Assembly: GCA_022736495.1 (NCBI GenBank) | Contig: DZCR01000054.1 | Coordinates: 1 to 19,538, forward strand | DNA: 19,538 nt | Origin: Desulfobacca acetoxidans | GTDB lineage: Bacteria > Desulfobacterota > Desulfobaccia > Desulfobaccales > 0-14-0-80-60-11 | Direction: 5' to 3' | Part shown: positions 318 to 16,850 of the stretch, in pieces | Layout: each line of letters starts with the position of its first letter | How positions within the stretch are numbered: the first letter of the stretch is position 1 | The notes under the pieces: model-generated | What the model was told of the DNA's origin: nothing | Databases searched by the model: none | What the model saw: only the letters and a program-made list of their open reading frames with translations | Made by a program: the position numbers and the translations under genes

Positions 318-3300
318 TTAAAACTTGACAAATTGCTGGGCCTTTTCCTGCCTGGCGCAGGCAGGACATAAACGGCGCAGCACTTGTTTGTTCATGGCTT
401 CGTCGCTGCGCTTGCTGACATATCCCAGGTAACGGGATGGGGGAATAGGCGCCCCACAGGAAGCACAATGCTCTTCCTCCAGATGGTTTAACACCGTACC
501 GCAGAGACGCACCTCGCGATAATCCGGCCCCTCAATGTAATCAATGGCCTGGGTGGGGCAGGCCAGGGCGCAGGCGCCACAAGCAATGCAGGTGTTGGCC
601 GCCAGGGGGTAGTCAGTGAGGACCCGCTCGGTGGTGGTGATTTGGGAAAATTTCAGGGCGCGCACCCGCATCCGAACGCAGGTTTTTTCACAAGTGCCGC
701 AGCGGATACACACATCGCAGCGCAGGCAGCGGCTGGCTTCTTTCTGGGCCTGAGCGTCGGAGTAACCCATTTCCACCGGCATAAAGGTGGTTTTGCGCAA
801 TTCTACGTCCAACATCGGGATGGGAGTACGGTGATTGGCGATTTTTTCTGCGGCCGGGATGGTTTGAAAAGGTACTTTACGGCGTTTTTGAGGACTCATC
901 ACCAGGGCCGGGGTGGTGGCCCCGGTGAGGTAATGGTCGATTTCCGCAGCCGCTTGTTTCGCGGCGGCGATGGCTTCCACCACCGTGGCCGGGCCGGTGA
1001 CTGCGTCGCCCCCAGCGAAAATATCTTTCACGCTGGTATGGGTGCTGCCGGTTTGGGTGACGATGGTGCACCAGGGCGTGGTTTGCACCGGGTGTTCCGG
1101 GAAAGGACAGAAATCCGGTTGCTGCCCAATAGCGGTGATGACCGCGCCGACCTCGATGAGATAGTTGCTCTCCGGAATGGGTATAGGACGACGCCGGCCG
1201 CTGGCGTCCGGCCGCCCCAAGGCGGCCTGCAGGCATTCCACCTGAGTGACCTGGCCGTTATCGCCACCTATCTTGATGGGCACCGTCAGAAAATGTATCT
1301 GCACCCCTTCTTCCAGGGCCTGCTCCACCTCCTCGGGGTGGGCCGGCATCTCGGTCCGGGTGCGGCGATAGGAGACGTGGACCTCGGAGCACCCCAGGCG
1401 CACACAGGTGCGGGCCGCGTCCATGGCGGCATTGCCGCCGCCAATTATCAACACCTTGTCAGCGGGTTTTTCCTTTTTCCCCAGATAAATTCCCTGGAGA
1501 AAAGAGATCACATCATGGACCTGGGGAAAATCGGCTTCACCCTCGATTTTTAACTTGTAGCCCAAGTGAGCGCCGATTCCCAGGAAGAAGGCCTCATAGC
1601 CCTGAGTCCGCAATTCATCCAGGGTAACATCCTGGCCCACCATGACCCCGGTTTTGATCCTCACACCCAGAGACTTGATCAGCCGGACTTCTTTCCGCAC
1701 CACCTCCCGGGCCAGCCGGTAGTCGGGAATGGCGGCCATTAGCAGGCCGCCCGGTTCTTTCAGCCCTTCAAAAACCGTTACTTCGTAGCCGCGTAAAGCC
1801 AGAAAATAGGCGCAAGAAAGCCCGGCGGGCCCGGAGCCGATGATGGCCACCTTGTGGCCGTTGGCCGGAGCCGGCTGGGGCGGGAGAAAATTCCCGTGTT
1901 TGGAGACCCACTCGGAGGAAAAGGCTTTCAAGTAACGAATGTTGATGGGTTCGTCCAGGGTGGCCCGCACGCAAGCCCGTTCACAGGGATGGGGACATAC
2001 CAGGCCGCACACCCAGGGAAAGGGGTTGTCCTCTCGCATCACCTCCCAGGCTTCCTGAAAGTTGCCCTGGGCAATTAACCCGATGAAGCTGGGAATATCG
2101 ATGCCGGTTGGGCAGGCCTGATGACAGGGGGCCAGGAGCAGCTTGGGGCAGGTCCGGGCCGGACAATGCTTGTTTTCCAGGTGCAGGCGGAATTCTTCCG
2201 GGAAGTAATGGAGCGCGGTCAACAGGGGGTTCACCGCATTGCGGGCCAGTTGGCAGGCCCCCTTCATCTTCAAGGCCTGGCCTTGGTTTTCCAATTCTTT
2301 GAGGATATTCACACTCCCTATCCCCTCGGAGACTTGATCCAGCAGTTCACTGATCTTTAATAGGGCGACCTGACAAGTGGGGCACTGGCCCCCCGGCTGA
2401 TCGAGGATGAATTTCACCTGGTCCCGCACCAAAGAGACCAGGCAATCCCGCTCGTCCAGAACTTGCAAAGAGGCCACGGACAAAGTCGCGCCCATTTCTT
2501 TAATGGTATCGTGGGCCAGGTTCATATTAAGCAAAGACATGGGAAAAATTCCCCCCAGGGGGCCTCCCACCTGGATGGCCTTCGGGGTGTGCCCGAAGCT
2601 GAACCCGCCGCCTTCACCGTTAATAATGTCATGCAAGGTGGCGGACAAGGGCACTTCTATAAAACCGGGGCGTTCCACCGACCCGTGCAGGCGGAAAACC
2701 ACCGTGCCCGGCGCGCATTCTACTCCTAACTTACGGAACCAGGCCACCGGAGTCTGGGCGATAAACGGCAGAGAAGCTATAGTCATCAGGCTATGGGTGA
2801 GGAAAACCCGCCGAGGAAATCTGTCCAGGAAGCTCCGGGGCAAAAGCCCCGTCAGGCTGCGGATGAGGAGTTGTTCGTCCTCCATCATATAGCGGCCATG
2901 GCCGGAAACCAGCTTGATTTCCACCAAGGGTTCCTTCTTGGGCCAGATGGGAGCTGCCACGCAAGCCGCCATGGCTTCTTGCAGCCTCTCCCGGGCCAAC
3001 TCATCCTCCTCGGGCAGATAGATTACGGCGGCTTGAGCCTTCAAAGTTTTGGCCGCCAGGAGAATACCTTCCAAAACCTGGTGGGGACAACCTTCCATCA
3101 GAAACATTTCACTGCTGGCGTGGGGCGTGGGGGAAGCGGCGTTGACCACAATAATCGGCTGTTCTTTCTCCACCCGCAGTTCGCACCACCGCCTTCCCAG
3201 AGAAGAAGTGGTGAGACGGGAAAATTCGCAGAAACCCGCAGCCACCACTTTCTGCAGAAAGGGATCAAATCCCTGGCTTAGAAAGGATTGTAACCCCTTA

Positions 3301-3710
3301 TAACCGTCGTAATCCTGGTATTCCTCCCAAGACACCGGATCGATCTGGCCCACCAATTCGGAGATATACCGTTTTTGGGGTTCAACAAAGTCGCGAAAAT
3401 CTTTGCCCACCAGCCAGCGCTTCACCGGCCGTTTCTCATCCACGTGGCTTTGAACAATGCGGGCCGCCATGTCAGGGGTGATGAGCTCATAGAGATGAGC
3501 TCCGGCAGCATCCAGGACCTCCACCACCACATCTCTGCCTTCAATGCCCCGCCAGCCCACCAGGTGAACTTCCAGCGGCCCGAGGTCGTCCAGAGACCGC
3601 TCTTGCATAGCTTCCAGGAAAGCCTTTTGGACGGCCCGCGGCTCCCTTAAACTTTTACCCGGAAAGGTACAGATATTTACATGTAGCAAAGGCTGCCCGC
3701 TGTTAGCCAT
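318..3710 (-). CDS. NuoE/NuoF-like (cofactor-depleted) - GltD-like FAD/NAD(P)H oxidoreductase - ferredoxin fusion
   Basis: This 1130-residue protein is likely the flavin/NAD(P)H module of a cytoplasmic redox complex. Residues ~8-95 resemble the thioredoxin-like 2Fe-2S domain of NuoE/HydB-type proteins and ~145-510 resemble NuoF including its SLBB part, but most cofactor residues are lost (see finding). Residues ~515-600 are a GltD/DPYD-type Fe-S helical domain (Cys 529, 533, 568, 572, 576, 580). Residues 620-930 are a GltD-like flavoprotein with an FAD Rossmann motif GSGPAG (625-630), an NAD(P) motif GGGNAAMDAA (757-766) followed by YRRTRTEMPA, and a closing FAD motif FAGGDAV. Residues ~990-1055 are a ferredoxin domain (Cys 995-1011 and 1041-1051). 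The tail carries two CxxC pairs (1082/1085, 1115/1118), possibly a zinc ribbon. There is no signal peptide. It is the last gene of the operon after the ferredoxin and molybdoenzyme genes. Expected reaction: NAD(P)H to flavin to Fe-S to the ferredoxin subunit, or the reverse. Confidence 0.85.
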   Translation of the reverse strand: MANSGQPLLHVNICTFPGKSLREPRAVQKAFLEAMQERSLDDLGPLEVHLVGWRGIEGRDVVVEVLDAAGAHLYELITPDMAARIVQSHVDEKRPVKRWLVGKDFRDFVEPQKRYISELVGQIDPVSWEEYQDYDGYKGLQSFLSQGFDPFLQKVVAAGFCEFSRLTTSSLGRRWCELRVEKEQPIIVVNAASPTPHASSEMFLMEGCPHQVLEGILLAAKTLKAQAAVIYLPEEDELARERLQEAMAACVAAPIWPKKEPLVEIKLVSGHGRYMMEDEQLLIRSLTGLLPRSFLDRFPRRVFLTHSLMTIASLPFIAQTPVAWFRKLGVECAPGTVVFRLHGSVERPGFIEVPLSATLHDIINGEGGGFSFGHTPKAIQVGGPLGGIFPMSLLNMNLAHDTIKEMGATLSVASLQVLDERDCLVSLVRDQVKFILDQPGGQCPTCQVALLKISELLDQVSEGIGSVNILKELENQGQALKMKGACQLARNAVNPLLTALHYFPEEFRLHLENKHCPARTCPKLLLAPCHQACPTGIDIPSFIGLIAQGNFQEAWEVMREDNPFPWVCGLVCPHPCERACVRATLDEPINIRYLKAFSSEWVSKHGNFLPPQPAPANGHKVAIIGSGPAGLSCAYFLALRGYEVTVFEGLKEPGGLLMAAIPDYRLAREVVRKEVRLIKSLGVRIKTGVMVGQDVTLDELRTQGYEAFFLGIGAHLGYKLKIEGEADFPQVHDVISFLQGIYLGKKEKPADKVLIIGGGNAAMDAARTCVRLGCSEVHVSYRRTRTEMPAHPEEVEQALEEGVQIHFLTVPIKIGGDNGQVTQVECLQAALGRPDASGRRRPIPIPESNYLIEVGAVITAIGQQPDFCPFPEHPVQTTPWCTIVTQTGSTHTSVKDIFAGGDAVTGPATVVEAIAAAKQAAAEIDHYLTGATTPALVMSPQKRRKVPFQTIPAAEKIANHRTPIPMLDVELRKTTFMPVEMGYSDAQAQKEASRCLRCDVCIRCGTCEKTCVRMRVRALKFSQITTTERVLTDYPLAANTCIACGACALACPTQAIDYIEGPDYREVRLCGTVLNHLEEEHCASCGAPIPPSRYLGYVSKRSDEAMNKQVLRRLCPACARQEKAQQFVKF

Positions 3711-3750
3711 AATTCTCTATCTCCCTATTTTCTTAATCAAGGGAACAGTT

Positions 3751-3782
3751 TGCCGGGGCGAGCCTCATAACCCGCCCCGGCA
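3751..3782 (-). terminator. Intercistronic GC hairpin (attenuator or mRNA-stability element)
   Basis: A perfect 10-bp stem, TGCCGGGGCG (3751-3760) paired with 3773-3782, has a 12-base loop. It lies between the ferredoxin stop and the start of the fusion flavoprotein gene. In the direction of transcription it is not followed by a U-tract, so it is more likely a partial terminator or a 3'-end stabiliser that sets subunit ratios than a full stop. Confidence 0.5.
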
Positions 3783-3795
3783 GTGGTGTCTTTTT

Positions 3796-4320
3796 TTAAC
3801 GCGCGCTGACCACCGTCTCCAACTCAAAGGCCACGGTCTTGGCAAAGCGCTCCCGTTTGGTGGTGTCCATCTGTTCGACCCGGCCGAAACTCAGGCAATG
3901 GGTGACGCATTTGGCCACGCAGGCAGGCTCCAGACCCTGGTCCACCCGGTCCATGCAGTAGTCGCACTTCACCACTTTTCCCGTCTCCGGATTCCATTGG
4001 GGGGCGCCCCAGGGGCAGGCGGTGATGCAGGACTTGCAGCCCACGCACAGAGCGGCCTCTACATAGACGATGCCGTCCTCCGCCCGCTTGCGCATGGCGT
4101 GGGTGGGGCAGACGGGTACGCACCAGGGGTCTTCACAGTGGAAGCAGGGCATGAAGACGAAGGCCTGCTGAGGTAGTCCCGCGACCATTTTAGGGCCCAC
4201 AGGCATGATCTGCCCCAGACGGGGCCCGCAGGGCAGTCCTTTATTGGTTTTACAATGAACCTCGCAGCTCAAACAGCCGATGCACTTTTTTTGATCTTGC
4301 AGAAGAAAGTATTTGCTCAT
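3796..4320 (-). CDS. Four-cluster ferredoxin subunit of molybdopterin oxidoreductase (PhsB/NrfC/DmsB-like)
   Basis: A 174-residue electron-transfer subunit with 16 cysteines in four 4Fe-4S groups: Cys 13/16/19/23, 59/62/67/71, 92/95/98/102 and 119/122/134/138. The last group has the long spacer (EPAC..KC) typical of the NrfC/PhsB/DmsB family. I chose ATG at 4320 because AGGA lies five bases upstream. A GTG at 4332 overlaps the preceding gene's TGA and would add four residues. There is no Tat or Sec leader, so the protein is cytoplasmic, unlike many family members whose catalytic partner is exported. It probably passes electrons between the GltD-like fusion protein encoded downstream and the molybdoenzyme encoded upstream; the near-overlap with the latter suggests translational coupling. 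Confidence 0.88.
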   Translation of the reverse strand: MSKYFLLQDQKKCIGCLSCEVHCKTNKGLPCGPRLGQIMPVGPKMVAGLPQQAFVFMPCFHCEDPWCVPVCPTHAMRKRAEDGIVYVEAALCVGCKSCITACPWGAPQWNPETGKVVKCDYCMDRVDQGLEPACVAKCVTHCLSFGRVEQMDTTKRERFAKTVAFELETVVSAR

Positions 4321-4328
4321 GGGATTCC

Positions 4329-6422
4329 TCACGAAAGGGGGCGCACCTGCACCAGGGTTTCATCCAAAGCGGGGCTGCCGCCAACTTTATCAGAATTGTT
4401 TTCTTGCAGCAGGGCGTCACTGGCCCCCTTCTGATAACAACGGGTTTGGGCCGGCACAGTCTTGCCGAAACCGTGCAGCATGAATGCGGCTTCAGGGTGG
4501 ATAAAGTCGGTAACCTTGGCCCTGATTTTACCCTTGGTGCCCAATGGCGAGAGCACCTCCACATAGTTACCGTTCTTGATGCCCAGTTTTGCCGCGGCCT
4601 TGGTGGGAATCCACACCTCGTTCTCCGGGACCAACTCGTTCAGCATCGGGTTGTTCTGGGTGGACATATGAGTGTGGACGGCGCAACGCCCCACCATCAT
4701 GCAGAACTGGCCCTCCGGCGGTGGCGCTACCGGCTCGTAAGGCACAAACGAAGGTATGCCGGCTTTTTCCATAAGAGAGCTCACCAATTCGATCTTCCCC
4801 GAGGGAGTCAGGAACTTGAGGCCGTCTTTCCGGTCCATCATAATCGCCTTGTCGGTAAGCGCCACGAACCCCTTGGCGTCAAAATCCTCCAGCTTCACTC
4901 CCAGGTCTTTTAACTGGAAGTTCCAGATATCCTCAATGGTTTCATAGGGCAGATATTGCCCTATGTCCAACCGATTAGCCAGCTCTTTGATGATCTGCCA
5001 GGCCGGTTTGGTATCGTAGCGGGGGGAGACGGCTTGGCGGCGGATGCGCAACTGGGGCCGCGCCCCGGACACCAGCTGAATGGAGTCGGCCCGTTCCAGA
5101 TACATGGATTCCGGCAGAATGACGTCGGCATACCAGGCAATTTCACTAAAATTAACGTCAATGGCGACGATGAGGTCCAGCTTGTCCAGGGCCTGGCGCA
5201 CTTGGGCGCTGTTCGGAATGGACTGCAGCGGTTCAAAGCGGTTGGCGATCAGGGCCTTGATGGGGTAAGGGTCTTCGTTCAGGATGGCGTGGGCCAGCAT
5301 CTGGGGGTTGCCGTGGCTGGAGTCAGCGATAGGAAAGGCTTCAAGACCCGAGCCGTCAAACCGGGGGGCGGTAATTTTAGGAAATTCCTGGGACGAGACG
5401 TACTTGCCGATGTCGCCCCGCCCCGTGGCTTTGGGGCCTTTCCGAATGACCAAGCCACCCTGAGCCTCGATGCTGCCCATCAGGGCATTCAGGATGATAA
5501 TGGACCGCCTGAGATAAATCTCATTGGTGTGATGAGCGGCCCGGTAACCATAATGAAAGGTAACCGCGGGTTTGACTTCGGACACCTCCCGGGCCAGGGC
5601 CACGATCTCATTGGCCGGGATGCCTGTTTCCGTTGCGGCCCACTCGGGAGTGTAAGGCTCCACGAAGGCCATCAATTCGTCTAATCCGGAGACCCAGCGG
5701 CGCACGTAATCCTGATCATAGAGCCTTTCTTTCAAGATGGTATGGATCAGGGCATAATTCAAGGCCAGGTCGGTACGGGGACGGATCATCCAGTACCGGT
5801 GGGCCTTGGTGGCGGTGATAGTCGCCCGGGGGTCGATGTAGGTGAGCTTGGCCCCCTTGTCCATAGCTTTGAGAAGATTGTTGATGGGGGCAATCTCTAA
5901 AGATTCAAAGAGGTTGCGACCGTACATGATAATATGCTTGGTATTGGCGTAGTCCACAGACATCTGACCGTCGGTGTAGCCCGTCAGGGTCCGGAAGGCA
6001 GTGTTCGAGGACCCCTTGCACAGGGCGTCGTGAGTAAAGTGGTTAGGACTGCCCAGGGCCTTTACGAAAGCCTTGTTGATGTGAGTGTTGAGATTGGTCC
6101 GCTCGCCGAACACCAGGCTTTGCCCCCCGTGCTCTTGGAGGATGGACCTGAGTTTGTCCGTCACATATTCCAGGGCATCCTCCCAACTGGCTCGGCGCCA
6201 CTGGCCGGCGCCCCGGGCCCCGGTGCGGATCATCGGGTACTGGGGCCGTTCATGATCATGCAGCAGAGACAGCCCCGCACTTCCCTTGGCGCACAACGCC
6301 CCTTCAATGCCCCCAACATGGGGATTGCCCTGGATCCAGGTAACGTCATCGTTTTCCACCATCACCTGAATCGGGCAGCGCACCGTGCACATGAAACAGA
6401 TGCTCCAAACCTCAGTTGCCAT
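4329..6422 (-). CDS. Molybdopterin oxidoreductase catalytic subunit, PhsA/PsrA-like, cytoplasmic
   Basis: A 697-residue DMSO-reductase-family enzyme. The N-terminal 4Fe-4S motif is Cys 9, 12, 16 and 44 (CFMCTVRC, then GALCAKG). Cys135 in HDALCKGSS sits where the Mo-ligand cysteine is expected. Cofactor segments YIDPRATITA (195-204) and IRPRTDLAL (213-221) follow. The C-terminal dinucleotide-binding domain has HTHMSTQNNP, HGFG (650-653) and KGASDALL (665-672), and ends ALDETLVQVRPL, a pattern close to thiosulfate/polysulfide reductases. The Mo ligand, family and fold are well supported. The substrate (thiosulfate, polysulfide, tetrathionate or another oxyanion) is inferred from neighbours. The Cys motif begins at residue 9 with no room for a twin-arginine leader, so the enzyme is cytoplasmic. 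The start ATG at 6422 has an AGAGGA site just upstream. No membrane anchor subunit is encoded nearby. Confidence 0.88.
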   Translation of the reverse strand: MATEVWSICFMCTVRCPIQVMVENDDVTWIQGNPHVGGIEGALCAKGSAGLSLLHDHERPQYPMIRTGARGAGQWRRASWEDALEYVTDKLRSILQEHGGQSLVFGERTNLNTHINKAFVKALGSPNHFTHDALCKGSSNTAFRTLTGYTDGQMSVDYANTKHIIMYGRNLFESLEIAPINNLLKAMDKGAKLTYIDPRATITATKAHRYWMIRPRTDLALNYALIHTILKERLYDQDYVRRWVSGLDELMAFVEPYTPEWAATETGIPANEIVALAREVSEVKPAVTFHYGYRAAHHTNEIYLRRSIIILNALMGSIEAQGGLVIRKGPKATGRGDIGKYVSSQEFPKITAPRFDGSGLEAFPIADSSHGNPQMLAHAILNEDPYPIKALIANRFEPLQSIPNSAQVRQALDKLDLIVAIDVNFSEIAWYADVILPESMYLERADSIQLVSGARPQLRIRRQAVSPRYDTKPAWQIIKELANRLDIGQYLPYETIEDIWNFQLKDLGVKLEDFDAKGFVALTDKAIMMDRKDGLKFLTPSGKIELVSSLMEKAGIPSFVPYEPVAPPPEGQFCMMVGRCAVHTHMSTQNNPMLNELVPENEVWIPTKAAAKLGIKNGNYVEVLSPLGTKGKIRAKVTDFIHPEAAFMLHGFGKTVPAQTRCYQKGASDALLQENNSDKVGGSPALDETLVQVRPLS

Positions 6423-6590: not shown

Positions 6591-7235
6591 TTATTTCCCT
6601 TTAGGCTTCTCCTTGAGAAGATAGATCAGGTTGGTATCGAGGTCATAAGTCCAGGGTAGGCCCGCATTGCGCCAGCCGTTTTTGGTGCGTTTGCCGTAAT
6701 TGGGATCGTTCTTGTCTTTGACTTTGTCGCCTTCAAAGCCCTCTTGAATTTCGTATAAATTTTTATAGCCGCCTTTGACCATCTTTTCCACCGCCGGACC
6801 GGAACGGTTTCCCGAGCGGCACATCACCAGGATGGTGTCGGTGGGCTTGAAGATTTTATTGACCTGACGGATAAATTGGGGATTGTCCTTCCAGACGTAA
6901 TCTTTCTTGGTCGGATTCCAGCGATACGTCATGAACATGCTGGGTATATTGACCGCCATGGGAGCGTGGCCGATCTCCGCATATTCATCCGGGGTGCGTA
7001 CATCCAGGATTTTAATCTTATCCGGTTCCTTCTGCCACATAGCGTAGCCCTCGCGGGCGGTGATAATGGGAACCAAGGAAGCTGGGGTTTTCGGACCCTC
7101 GGAAACCACCGGTTTGGTCACGGGCGCTGCCGCTGGCGCCGGTTTGTCGGGAGTCCGGGTTTGGGCCAAGAGCGCGGTAGCTAAGGTTACATAGAGGAGA
7201 TAGCAGAGGAAAATAACGGCGATTCTTTTAAACAT
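6591..7235 (-). CDS. Secreted rhodanese-like sulfurtransferase
   Basis: A 214-residue protein with an N-terminal signal peptide (MFKR, hydrophobic core, then ALLAQ; likely cleavage near residue 24-25), a Pro/Ala-rich linker and a single rhodanese domain. The active-site loop is CRSGNRS with Cys139, and the domain opens with the usual ILDVRTPDEYAEIGH. It carries an aromatic and Lys/Asn-rich insert (~102-120). Rhodaneses move sulfane sulfur from thiosulfate or polysulfide to a nucleophile via a Cys persulfide; here that would happen in the periplasm. I chose ATG 7235 because AGGAGG lies seven bases upstream; an ATG at 7253 is in frame but would sit before this site. It overlaps the preceding gene by eight bases, implying translational coupling. 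Placement beside a sulfite-type permease and a PhsA-like enzyme supports a sulfur role. Confidence 0.85.
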   Translation of the reverse strand: MFKRIAVIFLCYLLYVTLATALLAQTRTPDKPAPAAAPVTKPVVSEGPKTPASLVPIITAREGYAMWQKEPDKIKILDVRTPDEYAEIGHAPMAVNIPSMFMTYRWNPTKKDYVWKDNPQFIRQVNKIFKPTDTILVMCRSGNRSGPAVEKMVKGGYKNLYEIQEGFEGDKVKDKNDPNYGKRTKNGWRNAGLPWTYDLDTNLIYLLKEKPKGK

Positions 7236-7833
7236 GCATATTCCTCCTCTCATTTGTGCTCAGAGGTAGTGCGGATGGGGCCGGCAGAGCGGACAAACTA
7301 TCCCCCTGAGTCGGGTCATGAACCGCCCTGGCTTGTATCCTGCGAAAATATCTCAGCCGTTTTTTTGCCCCTTTAACCAGGATATAGGCTGCTACATAGA
7401 TGAGAATAAAAACCCCGATGAAACCTAAAGACCAGTTGGTGCCCGGAATGGGGAACTCCACCTCCAAGAAGCGGGATTGCATCCAGGCCAGGGCCAGGAA
7501 GACTGGCCACAGAAACGCGCCCGACAGGGTGGCCTGTTGAAAGAAGGTATGCCCGAAGGCATCTTTGGCCAGATGGTTGGCGGCCTGATAAGCCTCCTTG
7601 TTACCGGCCTTCAAGGCCTCTATGGACAGGTCCTGGTACTTTGTCGCTTCCGACATTTTCTCACCGAGGCTCTTCCGGGTGAACCGGGAGACCAGCGAGA
7701 GGGTAACTTCCCCAATAAGCAGACATATACACGCCAGGACCAGGGTGCCGATGACAAAGTCTACTCCGGCCTGGCCGGTGAGCCGATAGAACCTGATGAG
7801 ATATTGATCAACAAATTGGATCAGTGGCTGCAT
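7228..7833 (-). CDS. Three-helix membrane protein of unknown function
   Basis: A 201-residue protein that I do not recognise with confidence. Predicted transmembrane helices lie at ~24-48, ~101-119 and ~135-155. Between the first and second is a charged, probably helical segment (~52-98) rich in Ala, Lys and Glu. The C-terminal tail is basic, then Ser/Pro/Ala-rich. The order helix, charged coil, two helices loosely recalls EMC3/DUF106 (YidC-superfamily) proteins, but this is a topological resemblance only. ATG 7833 has no good ribosome-binding site, so translation may depend on the gene upstream. It lies between the permease and rhodanese genes and is likely co-expressed with them, so it may be an accessory subunit of the transporter. 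Confidence 0.7.
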   Translation of the reverse strand: MQPLIQFVDQYLIRFYRLTGQAGVDFVIGTLVLACICLLIGEVTLSLVSRFTRKSLGEKMSEATKYQDLSIEALKAGNKEAYQAANHLAKDAFGHTFFQQATLSGAFLWPVFLALAWMQSRFLEVEFPIPGTNWSLGFIGVFILIYVAAYILVKGAKKRLRYFRRIQARAVHDPTQGDSLSALPAPSALPLSTNERRNMHV

Positions 7834-7866
7834 GGGATAGCAAGTCCGGTTCGGAGACTGACACCG

Positions 7867-7894
7867 AGGGGGGCCGTTGTTTACCGGCCCCCCT
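7867..7894 (-). terminator. Hairpin between permease and membrane-protein genes
   Basis: A 10-bp stem, AGGGGGGCCG (7867-7876) with 7885-7894, and an 8-base loop lie in the 72-base gap between the two leftward genes. There is no U-tract, so it probably acts as an RNA-stability or processing element rather than a strong terminator. Confidence 0.45.
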
Positions 7895-7905
7895 ATGCGT
7901 CTTCA

Positions 7906-9054
7906 TCAAATGCCGGGCAGACGGATTTCCAAAAATCCTCGTAAAGTGTACCCTAAGCCCACGTAAATGGCCAGGATCACGAACAGCCGTTTCAGCCAGA
8001 CGTCGGGGATGTACTTGGAGGTATAAGGCCCGACCACGGAGCCGACGGCGATGCCTATCAGTTCGGCGCCCACGAACAGAAAGTCAATGGGTGTGCCCTT
8101 GACGAACATGAAGGTGAAGATAGAGGTGATCATGCTGATGAACACCGCCAACGCCGAAGTGCCGGCTACTACGTACATGGGGAGCTGTGTCACGGACGTG
8201 AGAAAGGGCACATAGAGGAAACCGCCTCCCACCCCGATGAAGGACGAGAGGGCGGCGATGAAGAAGCCGCCCAGGACCGGCCAGAGAGGGTTGAAGTGGA
8301 ATTCCACCCCATAAAAACTGAAATCTACCCGGGTTAAGCCCCAGGACTTCACCTGCACTCCCTGGGCCGCACTTTCCCCGCCTTTTTTTACCGCCTCCTG
8401 AAAGGCCTGAGCGGCCTTTTTGGCCTTTTTCTTTTTTTCCTGCCCCTTGGGGGTGGTGTCATAAAAGAGGAAGCAGCCGATCACTAAAACGACCAGGCCG
8501 AAATAACCTACGTACGCCTTCAGGCTAATCTTGCCGGCGGTGAGCACCGGGATCAGGTAGGCCCCGGCGATGCCGCCGATGGCCAGGGCGATACCCAAGG
8601 GCAAGACCAAACGGCCCATGCGGTAATAGGTTACGGAAGACATGAGAGCCGATAGACCTACCAGGTATTGGTTGGAAGTCCGGATGGAGTCGGTGATAAG
8701 CTTGTTCAGGACCGGGCTGGTTTTCCGGAAACTGGTGGCGTAATCACCCAGGCCGAAAACGCTGATGTGGCCCACCCCGGCCATGATGCCGCCGAAGGCT
8801 CCCACGGTAGAGAAGATCCAACCCACCCAAACGCCCCACAAGATGCCCCAGAACCAGAAGGGGGTGGGGCCGCCGGGAATGCCCAGAAAGCCCCTGGGGG
8901 CGTCAGGGTTGATCTGCCCCGGCCCGGTGCCCGCGGGAGTCTTGGCAATGGCTTCCTCCAGCTTGCCCGCCTCCGCCGGGGCGGTCAGCACCAGGGCAGC
9001 GAAGGCGACCAGGATGACCGCCATGCCAATAAGAATCCAGGTGTTTCTCTTCAT
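7906..9054 (-). CDS. TauE/SafE (TSUP) family permease, probable sulfite/sulfur-compound exporter
   Basis: A 382-residue polytopic membrane protein. It has a signal-like first segment (residues 5-29, ending TAPAEAG), several further hydrophobic helices in two halves, and the repeated glycine-rich TSUP signature: STVGAFGG near residue 82 and SSFIGVGGGFLYVPF near residue 270. A Lys/Ala-rich hydrophilic loop (~202-238) separates the halves and is longer than in minimal ~250-residue TauE proteins. TSUP members move sulfite, sulfoacetate, thiosulfate-like or other small organosulfur anions. The direction and substrate cannot be read from sequence. I chose ATG 9054 because AAGGAGG lies eight bases upstream; an upstream in-frame start would add 29 unlikely residues. 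It heads the operon with the unknown membrane protein and the rhodanese. Confidence 0.85.
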   Translation of the reverse strand: MKRNTWILIGMAVILVAFAALVLTAPAEAGKLEEAIAKTPAGTGPGQINPDAPRGFLGIPGGPTPFWFWGILWGVWVGWIFSTVGAFGGIMAGVGHISVFGLGDYATSFRKTSPVLNKLITDSIRTSNQYLVGLSALMSSVTYYRMGRLVLPLGIALAIGGIAGAYLIPVLTAGKISLKAYVGYFGLVVLVIGCFLFYDTTPKGQEKKKKAKKAAQAFQEAVKKGGESAAQGVQVKSWGLTRVDFSFYGVEFHFNPLWPVLGGFFIAALSSFIGVGGGFLYVPFLTSVTQLPMYVVAGTSALAVFISMITSIFTFMFVKGTPIDFLFVGAELIGIAVGSVVGPYTSKYIPDVWLKRLFVILAIYVGLGYTLRGFLEIRLPGI

Positions 9055-9154
9055 ACAATAAGCCTCCTTAATGAAATTATTTAGACCCGCCCCGGTGTAC
9101 GCCTCCCTTGGGTCGGTTTGGTACGCTGGGCCTATCCCCAAAACATCATTTCAG

Positions 9155-9265: not shown

Positions 9266-9300
9266 CTAAAAATAATTTGCCGCCGGTTAAAAGGAGCGCC

Positions 9301-10680
9301 ATGTTCCAAGGAGATTTGGGGAAACTCTGGGAAAAAGTGAGTGCCACCATGATGGAAGGAGTGGTAGTGGTGGACCCCAAGGGAACAATCCATACGGTCA
9401 ACCGCGCCATGGAGGAGATTTCCGGCTATACGCGCCACGAACTCATTGGTCAGAGCTGTGCCATGATCAGGTGCAGCGCTTGTTTCAATACGGAGCAATC
9501 CCCCACCCGCAAACTGTGCGAGCTTTTCCAAAACGGCGTGATTCCGCCCTCCAAATGCGTCCTGGCCAACAAGGATGGTAGCCTGAGACACGTCCTGAAA
9601 ACTGCGACTCTCATCATGGACGACGACGCCCAGATTTTGGGGGGCGTGGAATTCTTTATGGATATCAGCGAGTTGGCAGCACAGGAACGGCTTATCACCC
9701 GATTGCGCCGGGAACTTAGCCAGGAGGACGGCTTTCAGGGGATCACCGGCAAGTCTGCCGCGATGCTGCAGCTCTTTTCCCTGATCTCCAGCGTCGCGCA
9801 AAACGACGCTTCGGTAATCATTTATGGTGAGAGCGGCACCGGCAAGGAATTGGTGGCCCGGGCTATTCATAATCTCAGCCCGCGGCGCCAGGGGCCTTAT
9901 ATCAGGGTGAACTGTAAGGCCCTACAGGAATCGCTGCTCGAGACCGAGCTCTTTGGGCCCGGGTCTGGAGCTTTCAGCGAAGCGGAACCAACCCATCCCG
10001 GCCATTTCGAAGCGGCCCATGGGGGCGACATCTTTCTGGATGAGGTGGCGGACCTCTCCCCCACCATCCAGGCCAAGCTGCTGCGGGTTTTATGTGAAAA
10101 AGTCATCGAAAGAGAGGGTAGCCAGCGACCCATCGTGGTGGACGTGCGGGTGATCGCGGCGACTAACCGGGATCTGCACCAGCTTGTGGCGGCAGGCCGT
10201 TTCCGGGAAGACCTGTTTTATCGCCTCAATGTCATCCCCATGCATTTGCCGCCCCTGCGAGATCGGAGAGAAGATATTCCCCTGCTGGCGGAGTCCTTCA
10301 TCGAGCGGACCAGGCTCAAGACCGGCAAACTCGTGGCTGGCCTTAGCAAAGAGGCCATGGAGCTCTTGACGAAGCATGATTGGCCAGGCAATGTGCTCGA
10401 GCTCATCAATGCCATGGAGTATGCCTTTATGTTGTGCCCGGAGGGGTATATTTTGCCGGAGCATCTGCCGATGCACCTCAACCAGAGGGGCGTGGCCCGG
10501 TTCCGGGGGAACTCCAAAGCGCAGGATGGCAGCCCGGCCCGGGACAAGGAAGAGCTGGTAAGGGCTTTAAGAGGAGCCGGAGGGAAGATGAGCGAAGCCG
10601 CCAAAATTTTGGGAGTAAGCCGCGTTACCTTGTGGAAGTGGCTAAAATATCATAAAATTAATGTTAAAGATGTGATTTGA
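9301..10680 (+). CDS. PAS - AAA+ (sigma-54 interaction) - Fis-HTH regulator with atypical GAFTGA loop
   Basis: A 459-residue regulator of the NtrC/bacterial enhancer-binding class. Residues ~10-125 are a PAS sensor domain with five cysteines (53, 58, 61, 73, 86). Residues ~147-385 are the AAA+ domain, with Walker A GESGTGKE (176-183), Walker B GGDIFLDE (241-248) and arginine-finger region GRFREDLFYRL (299-309). The C-terminus (~417-453) is a Fis-type helix-turn-helix. Two key sites are altered: the sigma-54-contacting GAFTGA loop reads GAFSEA (223-228), and the sensor II arginine of GNVREL is leucine (GNVLEL, 363-368). I chose ATG 9301 with AAGGAG four bases upstream; a TTG at 9277 is in frame. 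It is the first gene of the rightward operon, divergent from the sulfur genes, which are its plausible targets. Confidence 0.88.
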   Translation: MFQGDLGKLWEKVSATMMEGVVVVDPKGTIHTVNRAMEEISGYTRHELIGQSCAMIRCSACFNTEQSPTRKLCELFQNGVIPPSKCVLANKDGSLRHVLKTATLIMDDDAQILGGVEFFMDISELAAQERLITRLRRELSQEDGFQGITGKSAAMLQLFSLISSVAQNDASVIIYGESGTGKELVARAIHNLSPRRQGPYIRVNCKALQESLLETELFGPGSGAFSEAEPTHPGHFEAAHGGDIFLDEVADLSPTIQAKLLRVLCEKVIEREGSQRPIVVDVRVIAATNRDLHQLVAAGRFREDLFYRLNVIPMHLPPLRDRREDIPLLAESFIERTRLKTGKLVAGLSKEAMELLTKHDWPGNVLELINAMEYAFMLCPEGYILPEHLPMHLNQRGVARFRGNSKAQDGSPARDKEELVRALRGAGGKMSEAAKILGVSRVTLWKWLKYHKINVKDVI

Positions 10681-10715
10681 TTCCCTTGCCTGGGCGAAAC
10701 GGCGCGCCCCGTGGG

Positions 10716-10734
10716 AACTTTAAGGGGTAAAGTT
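10716..10734 (+). promoter_or_regulatory. Small hairpin around the ribosome-binding site of the PhnD-like gene
   Basis: AACTTTA (10716-10722) pairs with TAAAGTT (10728-10734), leaving the G-rich Shine-Dalgarno (AGGGG, 10723-10727) in the loop, one base before the ATG at 10736. It may modulate translation; the stem is AT-rich and weak. Confidence 0.35.
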
Positions 10735-10735
10735 C

Positions 10736-11674
10736 ATGAGTGCGCGAATCGTGGCTCTCCTGTTGTGTGTCGGGCTGCTTCTGGGTGGTTGCGGGGATGA
10801 CGAGTCGGCCAAAACCATCGATTTATCCAAACGGGGGGAGGTCACGATAGACCGCCCGGAGAATGCCATCACCTATGCTTATCTGCCCCAGTACGCGCAT
10901 ACGGTCTCCTATGAGCGGCACCACCTGATAATAGAATATCTGAGTCGCGTCACCGGTCTGACCATCCGGCAGGTTTTTCCCGATACCTTTGATGAACACA
11001 TGCAGATGGTGGGCAAGGGGCTCATCGATATCAGCTTTAGCAATCCCTTCATTTACGTAAAGATCGCGGACCGGGATGGGGCCCGGGCCTTCGCCCGGAT
11101 TGTGGAACCGTTGGGCCAAGAAAAATTCCGGGGGGAGATCATCTGCCGCGCCGATAATCCCAGCATCAAAACCCTGGCGGATTTGAAAGGCAAACGCCTG
11201 ATAGCTGTTGACCCCACCTCCGCGGGAGGCTATCTCTATCCCTGGGGCTTGATTTTGGATAACGGCCTGCGCAAGGAGGATTTCTCCGAAATAACCTTCG
11301 CCACCGGGCCCGGCGGCAAGCAAGAGCGGGTGGTCATGGCGGTGTATTCGGGGAAGTACGATGTGGGCCTGATTCGCGAGGGAACTCTCAATATCTTGAG
11401 GGACAAGATCGATCTCACGAAAATTCGCGTCCTGGCGTACTCTCCCTGGTATCCGGGCTGGGTGTATGCCGCCCGGCGAGGCTTGGACCCGGCCGTAGTG
11501 GAAAAGATCAAACAGGCCTTGTTAGCCTTGAATATGCGGAACCCAGAGGATAAAGCCATCCTGGAAAAAGCCGGCTTTGTCGCGGTGATCCCGGCCCAGG
11601 ACGCGGACTTTAACCGGGTGCGGCGGCTGGCCGATATCGTGGAATCCGGAGGCGGCCCTAAGTCCCATCGTTAA
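10736..11674 (+). CDS. PhnD-like periplasmic substrate-binding lipoprotein (sensor partner)
   Basis: A 312-residue lipoprotein: signal sequence with lipobox LGGC and lipidated Cys19, then a two-lobed phosphate/phosphonate-binding (PhnD) fold. Family signatures are the VGKGLIDISFSNP segment (~92-104), SIKTLADLKGKRLIAVDPTS (143-162) with GGYLYP, and the later VYSGKYDVGLIREG. No ABC permease or ATPase gene is adjacent; a membrane histidine kinase follows after 35 bases. That arrangement matches binding proteins acting as sensory partners, such as AioX for AioS (arsenite), and the PhnD-like periplasmic domain of TtrS (tetrathionate). Mature Cys137 (EIICRAD) may matter for a thiophilic ligand. The ligand is not determinable from sequence; a sulfur oxyanion, arsenic oxyanion or phosphonate/phosphite are the options. 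Confidence 0.85.
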   Translation: MSARIVALLLCVGLLLGGCGDDESAKTIDLSKRGEVTIDRPENAITYAYLPQYAHTVSYERHHLIIEYLSRVTGLTIRQVFPDTFDEHMQMVGKGLIDISFSNPFIYVKIADRDGARAFARIVEPLGQEKFRGEIICRADNPSIKTLADLKGKRLIAVDPTSAGGYLYPWGLILDNGLRKEDFSEITFATGPGGKQERVVMAVYSGKYDVGLIREGTLNILRDKIDLTKIRVLAYSPWYPGWVYAARRGLDPAVVEKIKQALLALNMRNPEDKAILEKAGFVAVIPAQDADFNRVRRLADIVESGGGPKSHR

Positions 11675-11709
11675 CTTAACTGGAGCGAGCCTCAGGGAGT
11701 GAGGGCATT

Positions 11710-13818
11710 ATGCGGTTTTTAACCAGGCTGTCGTTTCGCAGCAAAATAATTTTGGGAATCACCGCCGTAGTCCTGGTCTTCGGCCTGCTCTCGGCTATTT
11801 TCGTGAGCAGAATTGCCACTCAGGCCATGCTGGGGGAAATCAAGAAGCGCGGCTTGAGCCTGGGCTTATCTCTCTCGGGCCGCGCCGCAGACCCCTTGTT
11901 GGCTCTGGATTTCCTCCGCCTGAAAAATATGGTGGACGAATTAAAAGAATCCAGTGATGACATTAGCTATGTCTTTGTCCAGGATAAACACGGCCAGATA
12001 TTGTCCCACACGTTCAAGGGCGGTTTTCCCATAGAACTCAAAGACGCCAATCGAGTGCCCCTGGGTTCGCCTCAGCAGATCCAACTCTTGGATGTTCGAG
12101 GGAAGCAAGGGGAGGAGCGGGTCTACGATTTCGCCATACCGGTCACCCTCAGTAATGAGCGCCTGGGAACGGTGCGGGTGGGTCTGTCCCAGGTCAAAGC
12201 CCAGGCCGCCGTGCGCCGGCTTCTCTTCATCATTTTCTGCATTTCGGCCGGGGCCGGTCTGATGGCGGTGGTGCTGGGCACCCTGTTTGCCGGCACTGTC
12301 ACCCGGCGTTTGGACAAGTTGCGCGTATCAGCTGAGGATATAGTCAAGGGAAATCTAGATCTCCAGACCGGGCCCCAGCTCAAGCGCAATTGCTGGGATA
12401 TCAAGGATTGTCAGCAGCCCCAATGCCCGGCCTACGGCGATACTCGCCGCCGCTGCTGGTATCTGGTGGGAACCATGTGCCCTGAGTGCGCCGCCGGAGG
12501 TTTCGAGCAGAAATTCGAAGCCTGCCGGGAGTGCCCGGTTTACCAGGAAATCAGGGGCGACGAAATTCAAAGCCTGGCTGAGGCCTTCGACTTTATGGCT
12601 CTCAATCTGGATACCTATATCACCGACCTCAAGGAGGCCGAACGGACGCTAACCAGGCAGCAGCAGCTGCTCAAAACCATCCTGGACGTTACCCCGGACC
12701 TGGTGAGTTTGCAGGATGAACATCTCACTTACCGGGCGGTTAATCCGGCTTTTTGCCAGTTCTTTGGCCTGAAGGAACAGGATATTTTGGGCAAATCGGA
12801 TGCCCAGATCTTTCCCCAGGTAGCCGCAAGCCATCAAGCGGAAGATCTGCAGATCATTAAGACCGGCCTTCCCCTGAGCAAGGAACTCCTGTTAAGCCGG
12901 AACCACCGGCGCTACTGGCTGCATATGGTCAAGGTGCCGGTTTACCTTGAGGACCGGATTGCCGGCCTGCTGCTCACGGTCCGGGATATTTCCGAGCTCA
13001 AACAATACCAGGAGAAATTATTGCAGTCGGTAAAAATGGAGCAGTTGGGCAAGTTGGCCGGAGGTATGGCCCACGAAATCAACACCCCTTTGTGCATCAT
13101 CCTGGGTTACGCGCAGATGTTGCTGGAAGACGTACCCGCAGGCACGCAAAGTTTTGAGTATTTAGGGATTATTGAAAAACAGGCCCAGATTTGCCGGCGC
13201 ATTGTCGCCGATCTCCTGAGTTTTTCCCGGAACCTTGAGAGCAAAATGGAGGAGATGGATCTCAACCAGTCCATCGAGGAGGTCTTGCACCTGGTCCGCC
13301 ACACCTTCAAGCAAAGCTGGGTCGACGTGGTTACCGCTTTTGACCCAGACTTGCCGCGTATAACCGGCGATAAGGAAAAACTTAAGCAAGTGTGGATCAA
13401 CCTCTTGAATAATGCCTTTGATTCCATCGGCCAGGACGGCACCATCTGGATAAAAACCAGTATCTGTCCCCAGGGCAAGCGGGTGCTGGTTACGGTGGCC
13501 GACAGCGGTTCCGGCATTGAAGCTGAAGACTTGAAAAGGGTATTTGAGCCGTTCTTCACCACCAAGGCTCCCGGCGCCGGCACCGGCCTGGGACTGTCGG
13601 TCTCCTTTGGCATCATCCAGGATCATCACGGCACCATCTCCGCCGTGAGCCCAAGCCCTCCGGCCTTTCGGGGTGAAGCCGGGCCGGGCAAAAGAGTACC
13701 AGGGCCGGGCTCGGTGTTTCTGGTGGAATTGCCGCTGTCGCCGAATGAACTCGGGGCAGATTCTTGTAGGGACCTGGTGACGAATTTGAAGCCGAACAGT
13801 TATCAGAAAGCCTCATAG
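11710..13818 (+). CDS. Membrane sensor histidine kinase with Cys-rich insert in HAMP, and PAS domain
   Basis: A 702-residue kinase. Domains in order: TM1 (~13-35); a small periplasmic domain (~36-168); TM2 (~171-194); a HAMP domain whose first helix (~195-220) is separated from its second (~283-305) by a 55-residue module with eight cysteines (228, 234, 239, 249, 257, 260, 272, 275); PAS (~318-430); HisKA with phosphoacceptor His455 (MAHEINTPL); and HATPase_c with N-box ([12 protein letters not shown]), DSGSGI and GTGLGLS (624-630). The Cys module has the CW...C...CPAY...CW...GT.C layout of the so-called two-CW domain seen in deltaproteobacterial sensors. A Pro/Gly-rich 15-20-residue insert interrupts the last beta strands. 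It follows the PhnD-like gene and is eight bases from the response regulator, so the three form one signalling unit. Confidence 0.88.
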
Positions 13819-13826
13819 GAGGGGTT

Positions 13827-14216
13827 ATGGGTGATATTCTAGTGCTCGACGACGTCTTGGACGCCGGCGTCATGATCAAACGCATCCTGGAACGGAAAGG
13901 CCATCAGGTAACAGTTTTTACCGAAGAGGAAGCGGCCCTCGGGCATGTTCGAACTCACCCGGTGGAGGTAGCGATTTTGGACATCCGGCTCAAAAAGATG
14001 AGTGGCGTGGATATGCTGGAGGAATTGAAAAAGGTCTCGCCCCATATCCAGGTAATTATGCTGACCGGTTATCCCACCCTGGAAACGGCGCGCCGGGCCA
14101 AGGAAATGGGTGCCTTTGATTATTGCATCAAACCCATTGACAAAGACGAACTGGAAGAGAAGGTGGCCAGCGCCCTGTCCGCGGCAACGGCGCAACTTGC
14201 AAATATGGCAGATTGA
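13827..14216 (+). CDS. Single-domain response regulator (receiver only)
   Basis: A 129-residue CheY-like receiver with acidic pair Asp8/Asp9, phosphoacceptor Asp52 (AILDIRL), conserved Thr in LTGYPT and Lys in CIKPID. No DNA-binding output domain follows; a stop comes right after the last receiver helix. It has a strong Shine-Dalgarno (AGGAGGGG) and starts eight bases after the kinase stop, so it is the cognate partner. As it lacks an output, it must act by protein contact, perhaps on the AAA+ regulator at the head of the operon (which lacks a receiver) or on the dikinase-like and phosphatase proteins encoded downstream. Confidence 0.88.
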   Translation: MGDILVLDDVLDAGVMIKRILERKGHQVTVFTEEEAALGHVRTHPVEVAILDIRLKKMSGVDMLEELKKVSPHIQVIMLTGYPTLETARRAKEMGAFDYCIKPIDKDELEEKVASALSAATAQLANMAD

Positions 14217-14297
14217 TCACCTTGAAGGTGAAGGCCGGCGGGTCCATCGCTCCCGTCCTTCCTTTTAAAGTCCCTTCCCACCCAAACCTGGTTTGCC

Positions 14298-16811: not shown

Positions 16812-16850
16812 AAAAGCCAGGCCCGAGCCAATGCAGGAGAACTGGGTTTC

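What the first reader, a model, noticed from the sequence alone, without database searches (positions are those of the whole stretch)
318..6422. Soluble PhsA/PhsB-like molybdoenzyme wired to an NAD(P)H flavoprotein instead of a quinone anchor
Seen: three adjacent leftward genes encode a PhsA/PsrA-like catalytic subunit, a 16-Cys ferredoxin and a GltD-like FAD/NAD(P)H fusion. None has a leader peptide, and no membrane anchor gene is present. Known: characterised Phs and Psr enzymes are exported by Tat and take electrons from menaquinol via a membrane subunit. Inference: this is a cytoplasmic NAD(P)H-linked (possibly bifurcating or confurcating) reductase or oxidase of a sulfur compound.
Basis: partly seen in the sequence, partly recalled or inferred. 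Interest (0 to 1): 0.7.

Follow-up and report, generated by a model that had tools for sequence, protein, structure and literature searches.

The report
Anchorless thiosulfate-reductase-like NAD(P)H enzyme
Three neighbouring genes of a probable sulfate-reducing bacterium appear to encode a molybdenum enzyme inside the cell that swaps electrons between a sulfur compound and NAD(P)H, which would suggest how a widespread thiosulfate-reductase-like pair without its membrane part gets its electrons.

Summary
Genes at 4329-6422, 3796-4332 and 318-3710 (minus strand) encode a PhsA/PsrA-like subunit without Tat signal, a four-cluster ferredoxin and a flavoprotein. The NfnB/GltD half is intact. The order is conserved: in 80 relatives the ferredoxin follows directly in 79, and a GltD gene is in the locus in 67 of 72 informative ones. 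Ten relatives carry a separate HydB-like gene (motifs intact in the eight long enough), each with NuoE; none of 12 with the decayed domain shows NuoE. The catalytic subunits form one clade (support 99) beside PhsA and PsrA; no convincing Tat leader was seen in 131 scanned. A sister branch sits before complex I genes in 15 of 50 loci. In 297 Desulfobacterota genomes, 74 of 76 carriers have dsrA. PhsAB without PhsC is already reported, without known electron partner; these partners are what is added. Best reading: a cytoplasmic NAD(P)H-linked thiosulfate or polysulfide oxidoreductase. Substrate and direction are unproven; bifurcation is unlikely here, plausible in relatives.

The parts
4329..6422 (-). 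MopB catalytic subunit, PhsA/PsrA-like, 697 aa; N-terminal 4Fe-4S motif C9-C12-C16-C44; Mo-ligand Cys135 followed by Lys136; no Tat signal
   Evidence: Cys9/12/16/44/135 conserved in 81 of 81 sequences; trees
3796..4332 (-). PhsB/DmsB-like ferredoxin, 178 aa, four 4Fe-4S motif sets (18 Cys in all); GTG start overlaps the end of the catalytic gene
   Evidence: directly downstream of the catalytic gene in 79 of 80 loci
318..3710 (-). flavoprotein fusion, 1130 aa: pseudo-HydB/NuoF domain + NfnB/GltD domain + C-terminal 4Fe-4S pair and CxxC pairs
2136..3710 (-). residues 1-525 of the fusion: HydB/NuoF fold without the FMN loop, NADE, GES/GEE and NNVET motifs and with three of the four N3 cysteines
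906..2165 (-). residues 516-935 of the fusion: FAD/NAD(P)H GltD-like domain (NfnB/StnC type), Arg665 at the place of NfnB Arg201 and StnC Arg239
   Evidence: the arginine from the alignments and PMC10482914 (passages)
318..905 (-). residues 936-1130 plus stop: C-terminal 4Fe-4S pair and CxxC tail
7906..9141 (-). TauE/SafE-family membrane protein, upstream on the same strand
   Evidence: TauE-family match in 56 of 80 loci with the window protein as query
7228..7833 (-). 201-aa hydrophobic protein without Pfam match, next to the TauE gene
   Evidence: 35 of 80 loci
6591..7253 (-). rhodanese-domain protein with an N-terminal hydrophobic stretch; not a conserved part (found in 1 of 80 loci)
9277..14216 (+). 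divergent regulators: PAS/sigma-54 activator 9277-10680, PhnD-type binding protein 10736-11674, histidine kinase 11710-13818, receiver-like protein 13827-14216 (the last read by eye, not scanned)
   Evidence: binding-protein gene in 11 of 80 loci

Best explanation
The three genes encode a soluble cytoplasmic complex. NAD(P)H binds the GltD-like half of the third subunit and reduces its FAD. Electrons pass singly through the 4Fe-4S clusters of that protein, then through the four clusters of the PhsB-like ferredoxin, to the Mo/W-bisPGD centre (Cys135 ligand) of the PhsA-like subunit. There they cleave a sulfur-sulfur bond, most likely of thiosulfate (to sulfite and sulfide) or of a polysulfide or persulfide, inside a sulfate-reducing cell where DsrAB takes over the sulfite. 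The N-terminal HydB/NuoF half no longer has the residues for FMN and NADH or a full N3 cluster; it probably serves as scaffold and docking surface left from a bifurcating ancestor. Shown: families, fold of the fusion, lost motifs, selection, gene order, absence of Tat and of a nearby NrfD anchor, clade position, link with dsrA. Inferred: assembly into one complex, electron path, direction, NADPH or NADH, substrate, and that the window's organism itself reduces sulfate (its genome is not held).
For: Domain families. Closest solved relatives 2vpw A and B and NfnB/StnC. Clade beside PhsA/PsrA and away from FdhF, FdnG, acetylene hydratase, DmsA, TtrA and Nas (family 99, with PhsA 86, with PsrA 93; 73-row clade 99). 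Gene order in 80 loci: ferredoxin directly downstream in 79; GltD (strict score) downstream on the same strand in 63 and in the locus in 67 of 72 informative ones, 8 being too short. Second sample, narrow branch: of 14 loci not already among the 80, 13 have room and 12 of these have GltD. No Tat: of 81 narrow sequences one (L065) has an RR hit, 13 residues before the Fe-S motif and without hydrophobic stretch; 0 of 50 broad-branch sequences (L207 is cut at its start); the outlying homologue L171 does have a Tat leader. NrfD (PF03916): none in 3 of 10 genomes; in the other 7 the only ones on the gene's contig lie about 70 and 557 kb away (positions). dsrA: 74 of 76 carriers against 70 of 221 non-carriers. 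In Desulfofundulus australicus, D. thermobenzoicus and Desulfovirgula thermocuniculi this is the only strong PhsA-like gene (531-536 bits, next best 203-232); Desulfofundulus uses thiosulfate and D. thermobenzoicus disproportionates it (PMC11206085, passages). D. alaskensis PhsAB mutants are slightly less fit on thiosulfate (-0.79, -0.30; PMC4215793, passages), but I could not test whether that protein lies in this clade.
Against: No activity has been measured for any member to my knowledge. The residue after the Mo cysteine is Lys in the window's branch, Pro in PhsA and Thr in PsrA, and nearby stretches differ too, so the substrate may differ. Thiosulfate (about -402 mV, recalled) is hard to reduce with NAD(P)H alone (-320 mV, recalled). 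DsrAB can itself reduce thiosulfate (stated in PMC4215793). Five of 72 informative loci show no GltD gene: L012, L074, L075, and L022 and L049, whose contigs end about 5 kb behind the gene. In the broad branch only 9 of 46 loci with room have GltD, 15 have complex I genes and 22 neither, so the partner is not fixed; two near-identical loci there (L161, L208) do have a NrfD gene directly upstream. PhsC-type cytochrome b was not sought genome-wide.
Confidence: 0.55

Rival explanations
1. The enzyme runs the other way: it oxidises a reduced sulfur compound (for example sulfide plus sulfite to thiosulfate, or sulfane sulfur) and feeds the electrons to NAD(P)+; in the sister branch it feeds complex I and the quinone pool, in the place of NuoEFG.
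For: 15 of 50 broad-branch loci have the PhsA-like gene, the ferredoxin gene directly after it and NuoD on the same strand within 6.5 kb, with no NuoE or NuoF match in the stretch searched; Pfam confirmed the 49-kDa subunit in four of them and NuoH and NuoA types in one. A couple near -402 mV (recalled) is favourable as donor to NAD(P)+. PMC9751629 lists PhsA-1, PhsB-1 and a NuoB with neighbouring locus tags, detected by proteomics.
Against: Characterised PhsA and PsrA are listed as reductases (PMC10100899, passages). No data on direction here; NuoEFG could be encoded elsewhere in those genomes (not searched).
Confidence: 0.2
2. The complex bifurcates or confurcates: the GltD-type FAD splits electrons between NAD(P)H, ferredoxin and the sulfur compound, as in NfnB, so that thiosulfate reduction is driven partly by ferredoxin.
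For: The NfnB Arg201 equivalent is present (Arg665). Ten relatives carry NuoE plus a HydB-like NuoF (747 bits to NfnB 9n5u_B, 732 to HydB 7q4v_B for L061), motifs intact in the eight long enough to show them, and Nqo3-like proteins occur beside them. One broad-branch locus (L202) also has NuoE, NuoF and GltD.
Against: In the window the HydB domain has lost its motifs and NuoE is missing. The same Arg is present in non-bifurcating StnC (PMC10482914, passages), so it does not discriminate. No NfnA-like small subunit among the ten window proteins scanned.
Confidence: 0.15
3. The Mo subunit acts on something other than sulfur-sulfur bonds, such as selenite, an arsenic oxyanion or an organic compound.
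For: Selenite reductase SrrA is grouped with PsrA and PhsA (PMC10100899, passages). Lys136 and the GERxN stretch differ from PhsA and PsrA.
Against: Carriers nearly always have dsrA; TauE-family neighbour in 56 of 80 loci; a PhnD-type binding protein with weak similarity to the tetrathionate sensor TtrS in the window (34.5 bits, cut-off 750).
Confidence: 0.12

Closest known systems
PhsABC thiosulfate reductase and PsrABC polysulfide reductase (2vpw)
   Same: catalytic MopB subunit with Cys ligand and four-cluster ferredoxin, best sequence matches, neighbouring position in the tree
   Different: no Tat signal, no membrane anchor gene, different residue after the Mo cysteine, an NAD(P)H flavoprotein in the operon
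PhsAB without PhsC of Desulfolithobacter and other bacteria (PMC9751629)
   Same: PhsA and PhsB without PhsC; a NuoB with a neighbouring locus tag, as in the sister branch seen here
   Different: the passages read assign no electron partner and state that no functional analysis of PhsAB had been performed; GltD, pseudo-HydB and HydBC-type modules are not mentioned in them
StnABC and NfnAB transhydrogenases
   Same: GltD-type NAD(P)H/FAD domain; in Stn also a HydB-type module
   Different: the Stn HydB-type module has FMN and bifurcates; here it is decayed and fused to the GltD domain, and a PhsAB-like Mo enzyme is attached
Bfu family (HydBC-core enzymes, PMC9304861)
   Same: relatives such as L061, L063 and L068 have the HydB-like and NuoE-like parts
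   Different: the words thiosulfate, polysulfide and molybdopterin do not occur in that paper's main text
Aromatoleum W-dependent aldehyde oxidoreductase AorABC (recalled; a ferredoxin called a potential aldehyde oxidoreductase subunit, 8c0z_C, is a hit)
   Same: soluble metalloenzyme, four-cluster ferredoxin and a GltD-like FAD subunit (recalled)
   Different: catalytic subunit of the AOR family, not MopB (recalled)

Membership tests
PhsABC/PsrABC respiratory reductase | catalytic subunit next to PhsA/PsrA in the tree, with Cys Mo ligand and N-terminal 4Fe-4S | tested here: met
PhsABC/PsrABC respiratory reductase | NCBIfam PhsA score above the curated cut-off | tested here: not met
   592.6 bits against 694
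PhsABC/PsrABC respiratory reductase | Tat export signal on the catalytic subunit | tested here: not met
   absent in the window; no convincing leader in 80 relatives and 50 broad-branch sequences; outlier L171 positive
PhsABC/PsrABC respiratory reductase | membrane anchor subunit (NrfD or cytochrome b type) in the gene set | tested here: not met
   none in the ten window proteins scanned; NrfD absent from 3 genomes of relatives and not near the gene in 7; PhsC-type cytochrome b not searched genome-wide
PhsABC/PsrABC respiratory reductase | thiosulfate or polysulfide reductase activity | not testable with these tools
   needs enzyme assay
Formate dehydrogenase | His after the Mo-ligand residue and placement with formate dehydrogenases | tested here: not met
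   Lys136 in the window, His in FdhF and FdnG; separate in the tree
HydBC/Bfu electron-bifurcating core (window's N-terminal half) | HydB/NuoF fold | tested here: met
HydBC/Bfu electron-bifurcating core (window's N-terminal half) | FMN loop, NADE, GES/GEE and NNVET motifs, four N3 cysteines | tested here: not met
   all four motifs absent; 3 of 4 N3 Cys
HydBC/Bfu electron-bifurcating core (window's N-terminal half) | NuoE/HydC-like 2Fe-2S partner | tested here: not met
   no NuoE-like domain among the ten window proteins scanned; no NuoE match in 12 relatives with the decayed domain (L003 and L020 end early), present in the 10 with a separate HydB-like gene
NfnB/GltD NAD(P)H domain | FAD and NAD(P)H Rossmann folds and the 4Fe-4S ligand set | tested here: met
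   Cys529/533/568/572/576/580
NfnAB bifurcating transhydrogenase | NfnA small subunit with FAD and 2Fe-2S | tested here: not met
   no such domain in the ten window proteins scanned; only 317 bases of the window lie beyond the fusion gene, so a further gene could lie outside

The most novel reading that the evidence does not exclude
PhsAB without PhsC is a cytoplasmic plug-in of sulfate reducers that is connected in different lineages to an NAD(P)H flavoprotein, to a complete HydBC-type bifurcation module plus flavoprotein (which would be the first electron-bifurcating or confurcating thiosulfate/polysulfide enzyme), or directly to complex I in place of NuoEFG; in the window's lineage the bifurcating HydB domain has become a conserved pseudo-enzyme scaffold fused to the flavoprotein.
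Probability: 0.4. Interest if true: 0.78.

Novelty: new variant of a known kind. Interest (0 to 1): 0.58.

Why it matters
PhsAB without its quinone-reactive subunit is widespread in sulfate reducers and sulfur disproportionators, and its electron partner is an open point (PMC9751629, passages: no functional analysis of PhsAB had been performed, and subunit C is considered essential for contact with quinone). The conserved gene partners found here name concrete candidates and make the question testable. A decayed yet conserved HydB domain would also be a clear case of a bifurcation module turned into a scaffold.

Tried and rejected
Search of the window's own genome: none is held. Structure of the catalytic subunit from A1: mean pLDDT 47.9, not used. 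Sigma-54 sites: 7 matches in the window against 11.6 expected by chance; promoter and terminator scans gave nothing decisive. Rfam: no match. No tRNA. Formate dehydrogenase or acetylene hydratase reading of the Mo subunit: rejected by tree and, for formate dehydrogenase, by residues. Rhodanese as a conserved part: rejected, 1 of 80 loci. NfnB Arg201 as test for bifurcation: present, but also in StnC, so inconclusive. Rows dropped: paralogues L092 and L105 fell out of the tree because my ORF pick took a wrong frame; L009-type rearranged and too-short loci are counted apart as told. Recount: one search gave 65 loci with GltD downstream, but its query contains the ferredoxin tail and two of these (L022, L049) matched only that; the strict count is 63. 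Of the 88 places, 77 were examined for context; 2 others were already among the 80 loci and 9 were not fetched. Twelve of the 26 narrow loci of that sample are the same genes as in the first 80, so the samples are not independent. The quick trees warn of long branches among the reference enzymes; only the branches named are relied on. In one search the best 80 of 159 relatives were kept. Paper searches aimed at this gene set listed no paper whose title or abstract start describes the GltD or HydB partner; full texts were read only as passages, so this is not proof of novelty.


Full report
WHAT IS THERE. The window carries on its minus strand, in the order of transcription, a 697-aa molybdopterin subunit (6422-4329), a 178-aa ferredoxin (4332-3796) and a 1130-aa flavoprotein (3710-318). 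Pfam gives Molybdopterin, Molydop_binding and Molybdop_Fe4S4 for the first, Fer4 domains for the second, and for the third Complex1_51K and NADH_4Fe-4S followed by Fer4_20, Pyr_redox_2 and a C-terminal 4Fe-4S pair. Upstream on the same strand lie a rhodanese-domain protein, a 201-aa hydrophobic protein and a TauE-family protein; a PAS/sigma-54 activator, a PhnD-type binding protein and a histidine kinase follow divergently.

CATALYTIC SUBUNIT. Best curated model is PhsA (592.6 bits, below its cut-off of 694) and best solved structure the T. thermophilus enzyme 2vpw (385.6 bits; next acetylene hydratase 193.9). In a tree of 54 rows the family (with one paralogue) is one clade (SH-aLRT 99), joined with PhsA (86) and then PsrA (93), away from FdhF, FdnG, Nas, DmsA, TtrA and acetylene hydratase. 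A second tree of 78 rows gives a 73-row clade (99) made of a narrow branch with the window (99, 23 rows) and a broad sister branch (97, 50 rows), next to PhsA and PsrA; it used a simpler model and warns of long reference branches. The four Fe-S cysteines and the Mo-ligand Cys135 are conserved in 81 of 81 sequences. The next residue is Lys in the window and the six narrow-branch relatives compared, His in the two formate dehydrogenases, Pro in PhsA, Thr in PsrA.

NO EXPORT, NO ANCHOR. Among the window and 80 relatives no convincing Tat leader was found; one arginine pair (L065) lies 13 residues before the Fe-S motif without a hydrophobic stretch. Among 50 broad-branch sequences none has the motif (L207 is cut at its start). 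The outlying homologue L171 (36% identity, grouping with PsrA) has a Tat leader, which shows that the test can ring. NrfD-type anchors (PF03916): none in three of ten genomes (those of Desulfofundulus australicus, D. thermobenzoicus and Desulfovirgula thermocuniculi); in the other seven the only ones on the contig of the gene lie about 70 kb (G008) and 557 kb (G004) away (gene positions, NrfD positions; most contigs are shorter than 250 kb). Against a blanket statement for the broad branch, a NrfD gene lies directly upstream in two near-identical loci, L161 and L208. PhsC-type cytochrome b was not sought genome-wide.

THE FUSION'S SECOND HALF. It is NfnB/StnC/GltD-like (9bov_A 353.8 bits, 9n5u_A 343.9, 8oh5_C 333.9, 5jca_L 295.8), with the YRRTR stretch seen in 9bov_A and 5jca_L and Arg665 at the place of NfnB Arg201 and StnC Arg239. 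PMC10482914 (passages) reports that this Arg contacts FAD N5 in bifurcating NfnB but not in StnC, so its presence does not decide whether the window's FAD bifurcates. NADPH rather than NADH would be inference from these relatives.

CONSERVED ORDER. Of 159 relatives found in genome contigs the best 80 were kept. The ferredoxin gene follows within 600 bases in 79 of 80 (L009 is rearranged). A GltD gene (strict score) lies downstream on the same strand within 6.5 kb in 63 loci; three (L043, L061, L063) have it upstream on the same strand and one (L009) on the other strand; eight loci end less than 2.6 kb behind the gene; five show none, of which L022 and L049 end about 5 kb behind the gene and L012, L074 and L075 have 9 kb. 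So 67 of 72 informative loci have it. My first count of 65 downstream was two too high, because two matched only the ferredoxin tail of the query. The fused form occurs in 11 loci (L003 judged by identity, its contig ends in the gene), plus a related decayed form in L020. Ten loci have a separate HydB-like NuoF (L031 and L060 cut by the contig end before the motifs), and exactly these ten have a NuoE gene; none of the 12 with the decayed form shows one, though L003 and L020 end early. The NuoF of L061 scores 747 bits to NfnB and 732 to HydB and sits with NuoE- and Nqo3-like genes (the NuoE assignment by Pfam is for the L060 homologue). In the second sample 12 of 26 narrow-branch loci are the same genes as in the first; of the 14 new ones 13 have room and 12 of these have GltD.

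SISTER BRANCH AND COMPLEX I. Of 50 broad-branch loci 38 have the ferredoxin directly downstream; 46 have at least 2.6 kb behind the gene, and of these 9 have GltD, 15 have NuoD on the same strand within 6.5 kb and 22 have neither (two of the 22 have NuoD on the other strand). Pfam confirmed the 49-kDa subunit in four of the 15 loci and NADHdh and chain 3 in one. No NuoE or NuoF match was found in the stretch searched in the 15; the rest of those genomes was not searched. The nuo label needs three changes on the tree.

LINK WITH SULFATE REDUCTION. Of 297 Desulfobacterota genomes 76 have a member at E<=1e-150 and 144 have dsrA; 74 have both (Fisher p 1.4e-26, not corrected for kinship); the two carriers without dsrA are G103 and G246. 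For the narrow branch (over 1100 bits) 26 of 27 have dsrA. Seventy dsrA genomes lack the enzyme at that limit, so it is not part of the core pathway.

WHAT IS PUBLISHED. PMC9751629 (passages) reports PhsA/PhsB pairs lacking subunit C in Desulfolithobacter, detected by proteomics at low level during disproportionation, says that no functional analysis of PhsAB had been performed, and lists PhsA-1 (GF1_30490), PhsB-1 (GF1_30500) and NuoB (GF1_30520), which fits the complex I arrangement seen here. [quoted passage not shown] PMC4215793 (passages) gives slight fitness defects for Dde_1076:1075 on thiosulfate. PMC11206085 (passages) reports thiosulfate use by Desulfofundulus and thiosulfate disproportionation by D. 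thermobenzoicus; in that genome this family is the only strong PhsA-like hit (532 bits, next 223.5). PMC12998232 (passages) describes a different, Tat-associated MolyAB. PMC9304861 (find) does not contain the words thiosulfate, polysulfide or molybdopterin.

FUNCTION. Taken together the set looks like a soluble, NAD(P)H-linked counterpart of PhsAB/PsrAB. It is not filed as PhsABC or PsrABC, because export signal and anchor were tested and not met. Thermodynamics (recalled potentials) favour polysulfide over thiosulfate as acceptor for NAD(P)H alone; thiosulfate would need ferredoxin or low product levels, which the HydBC-type variants could supply. Direction may be reversed. All of this needs enzyme assays. 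The mended counts did not change my odds.

Noticed in passing
L156, L157, L161, L165, L198, L199, L201, L204, L205, L208, L211, L213, L214, L219, L221: PhsA-like genes of the sister branch stand, with their ferredoxin gene, before complex I (nuo) genes, with no NuoE or NuoF match in the stretch searched; they may be the input module of complex I there.
   Followed up: partly
window 7228-9141 and 56 of 80 relatives: A TauE/SafE-family protein, often with an unassigned 201-aa hydrophobic protein (35 of 80 loci), recurs beside the enzyme in Desulfobacterota and Bacillota; it may move sulfite, sulfide or thiosulfate.
   Followed up: partly
window 9277-17915; L058, L066: A PhnD-type binding protein, histidine kinase, receiver, a PEP-synthase-like protein (the last two read by eye, not scanned) and a dual-specificity phosphatase recur near the enzyme; the binding protein has weak similarity to the tetrathionate sensor TtrS.
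   Followed up: no
window 6591-7253 and L001: A rhodanese-domain protein with a hydrophobic N-terminus lies between the TauE pair and the enzyme, among the 80 loci only in L001.
   Followed up: partly
window 4329-6422, residue 136: Lys directly after the Mo-ligand cysteine in the window's branch (7 of 7 compared, all 15 rows of A1), unlike PhsA, PsrA and formate dehydrogenases.
   Followed up: partly
L058, L055, L029 and others, about 3 kb downstream of the catalytic gene: A CBS-domain protein (16 of 80 loci) and an Nqo3-like 2Fe-2S/4Fe-4S protein follow the GltD gene in a number of relatives.
   Followed up: partly
L161, L208: In these near-identical sister-branch loci a NrfD-type membrane gene and another ferredoxin gene stand directly upstream of the PhsA-like gene.
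   Followed up: partly
L202 and L164: Two broad-branch loci also have a HydB-like NuoF and NuoE near the PhsA-like gene (in L164 on the other strand).
   Followed up: no
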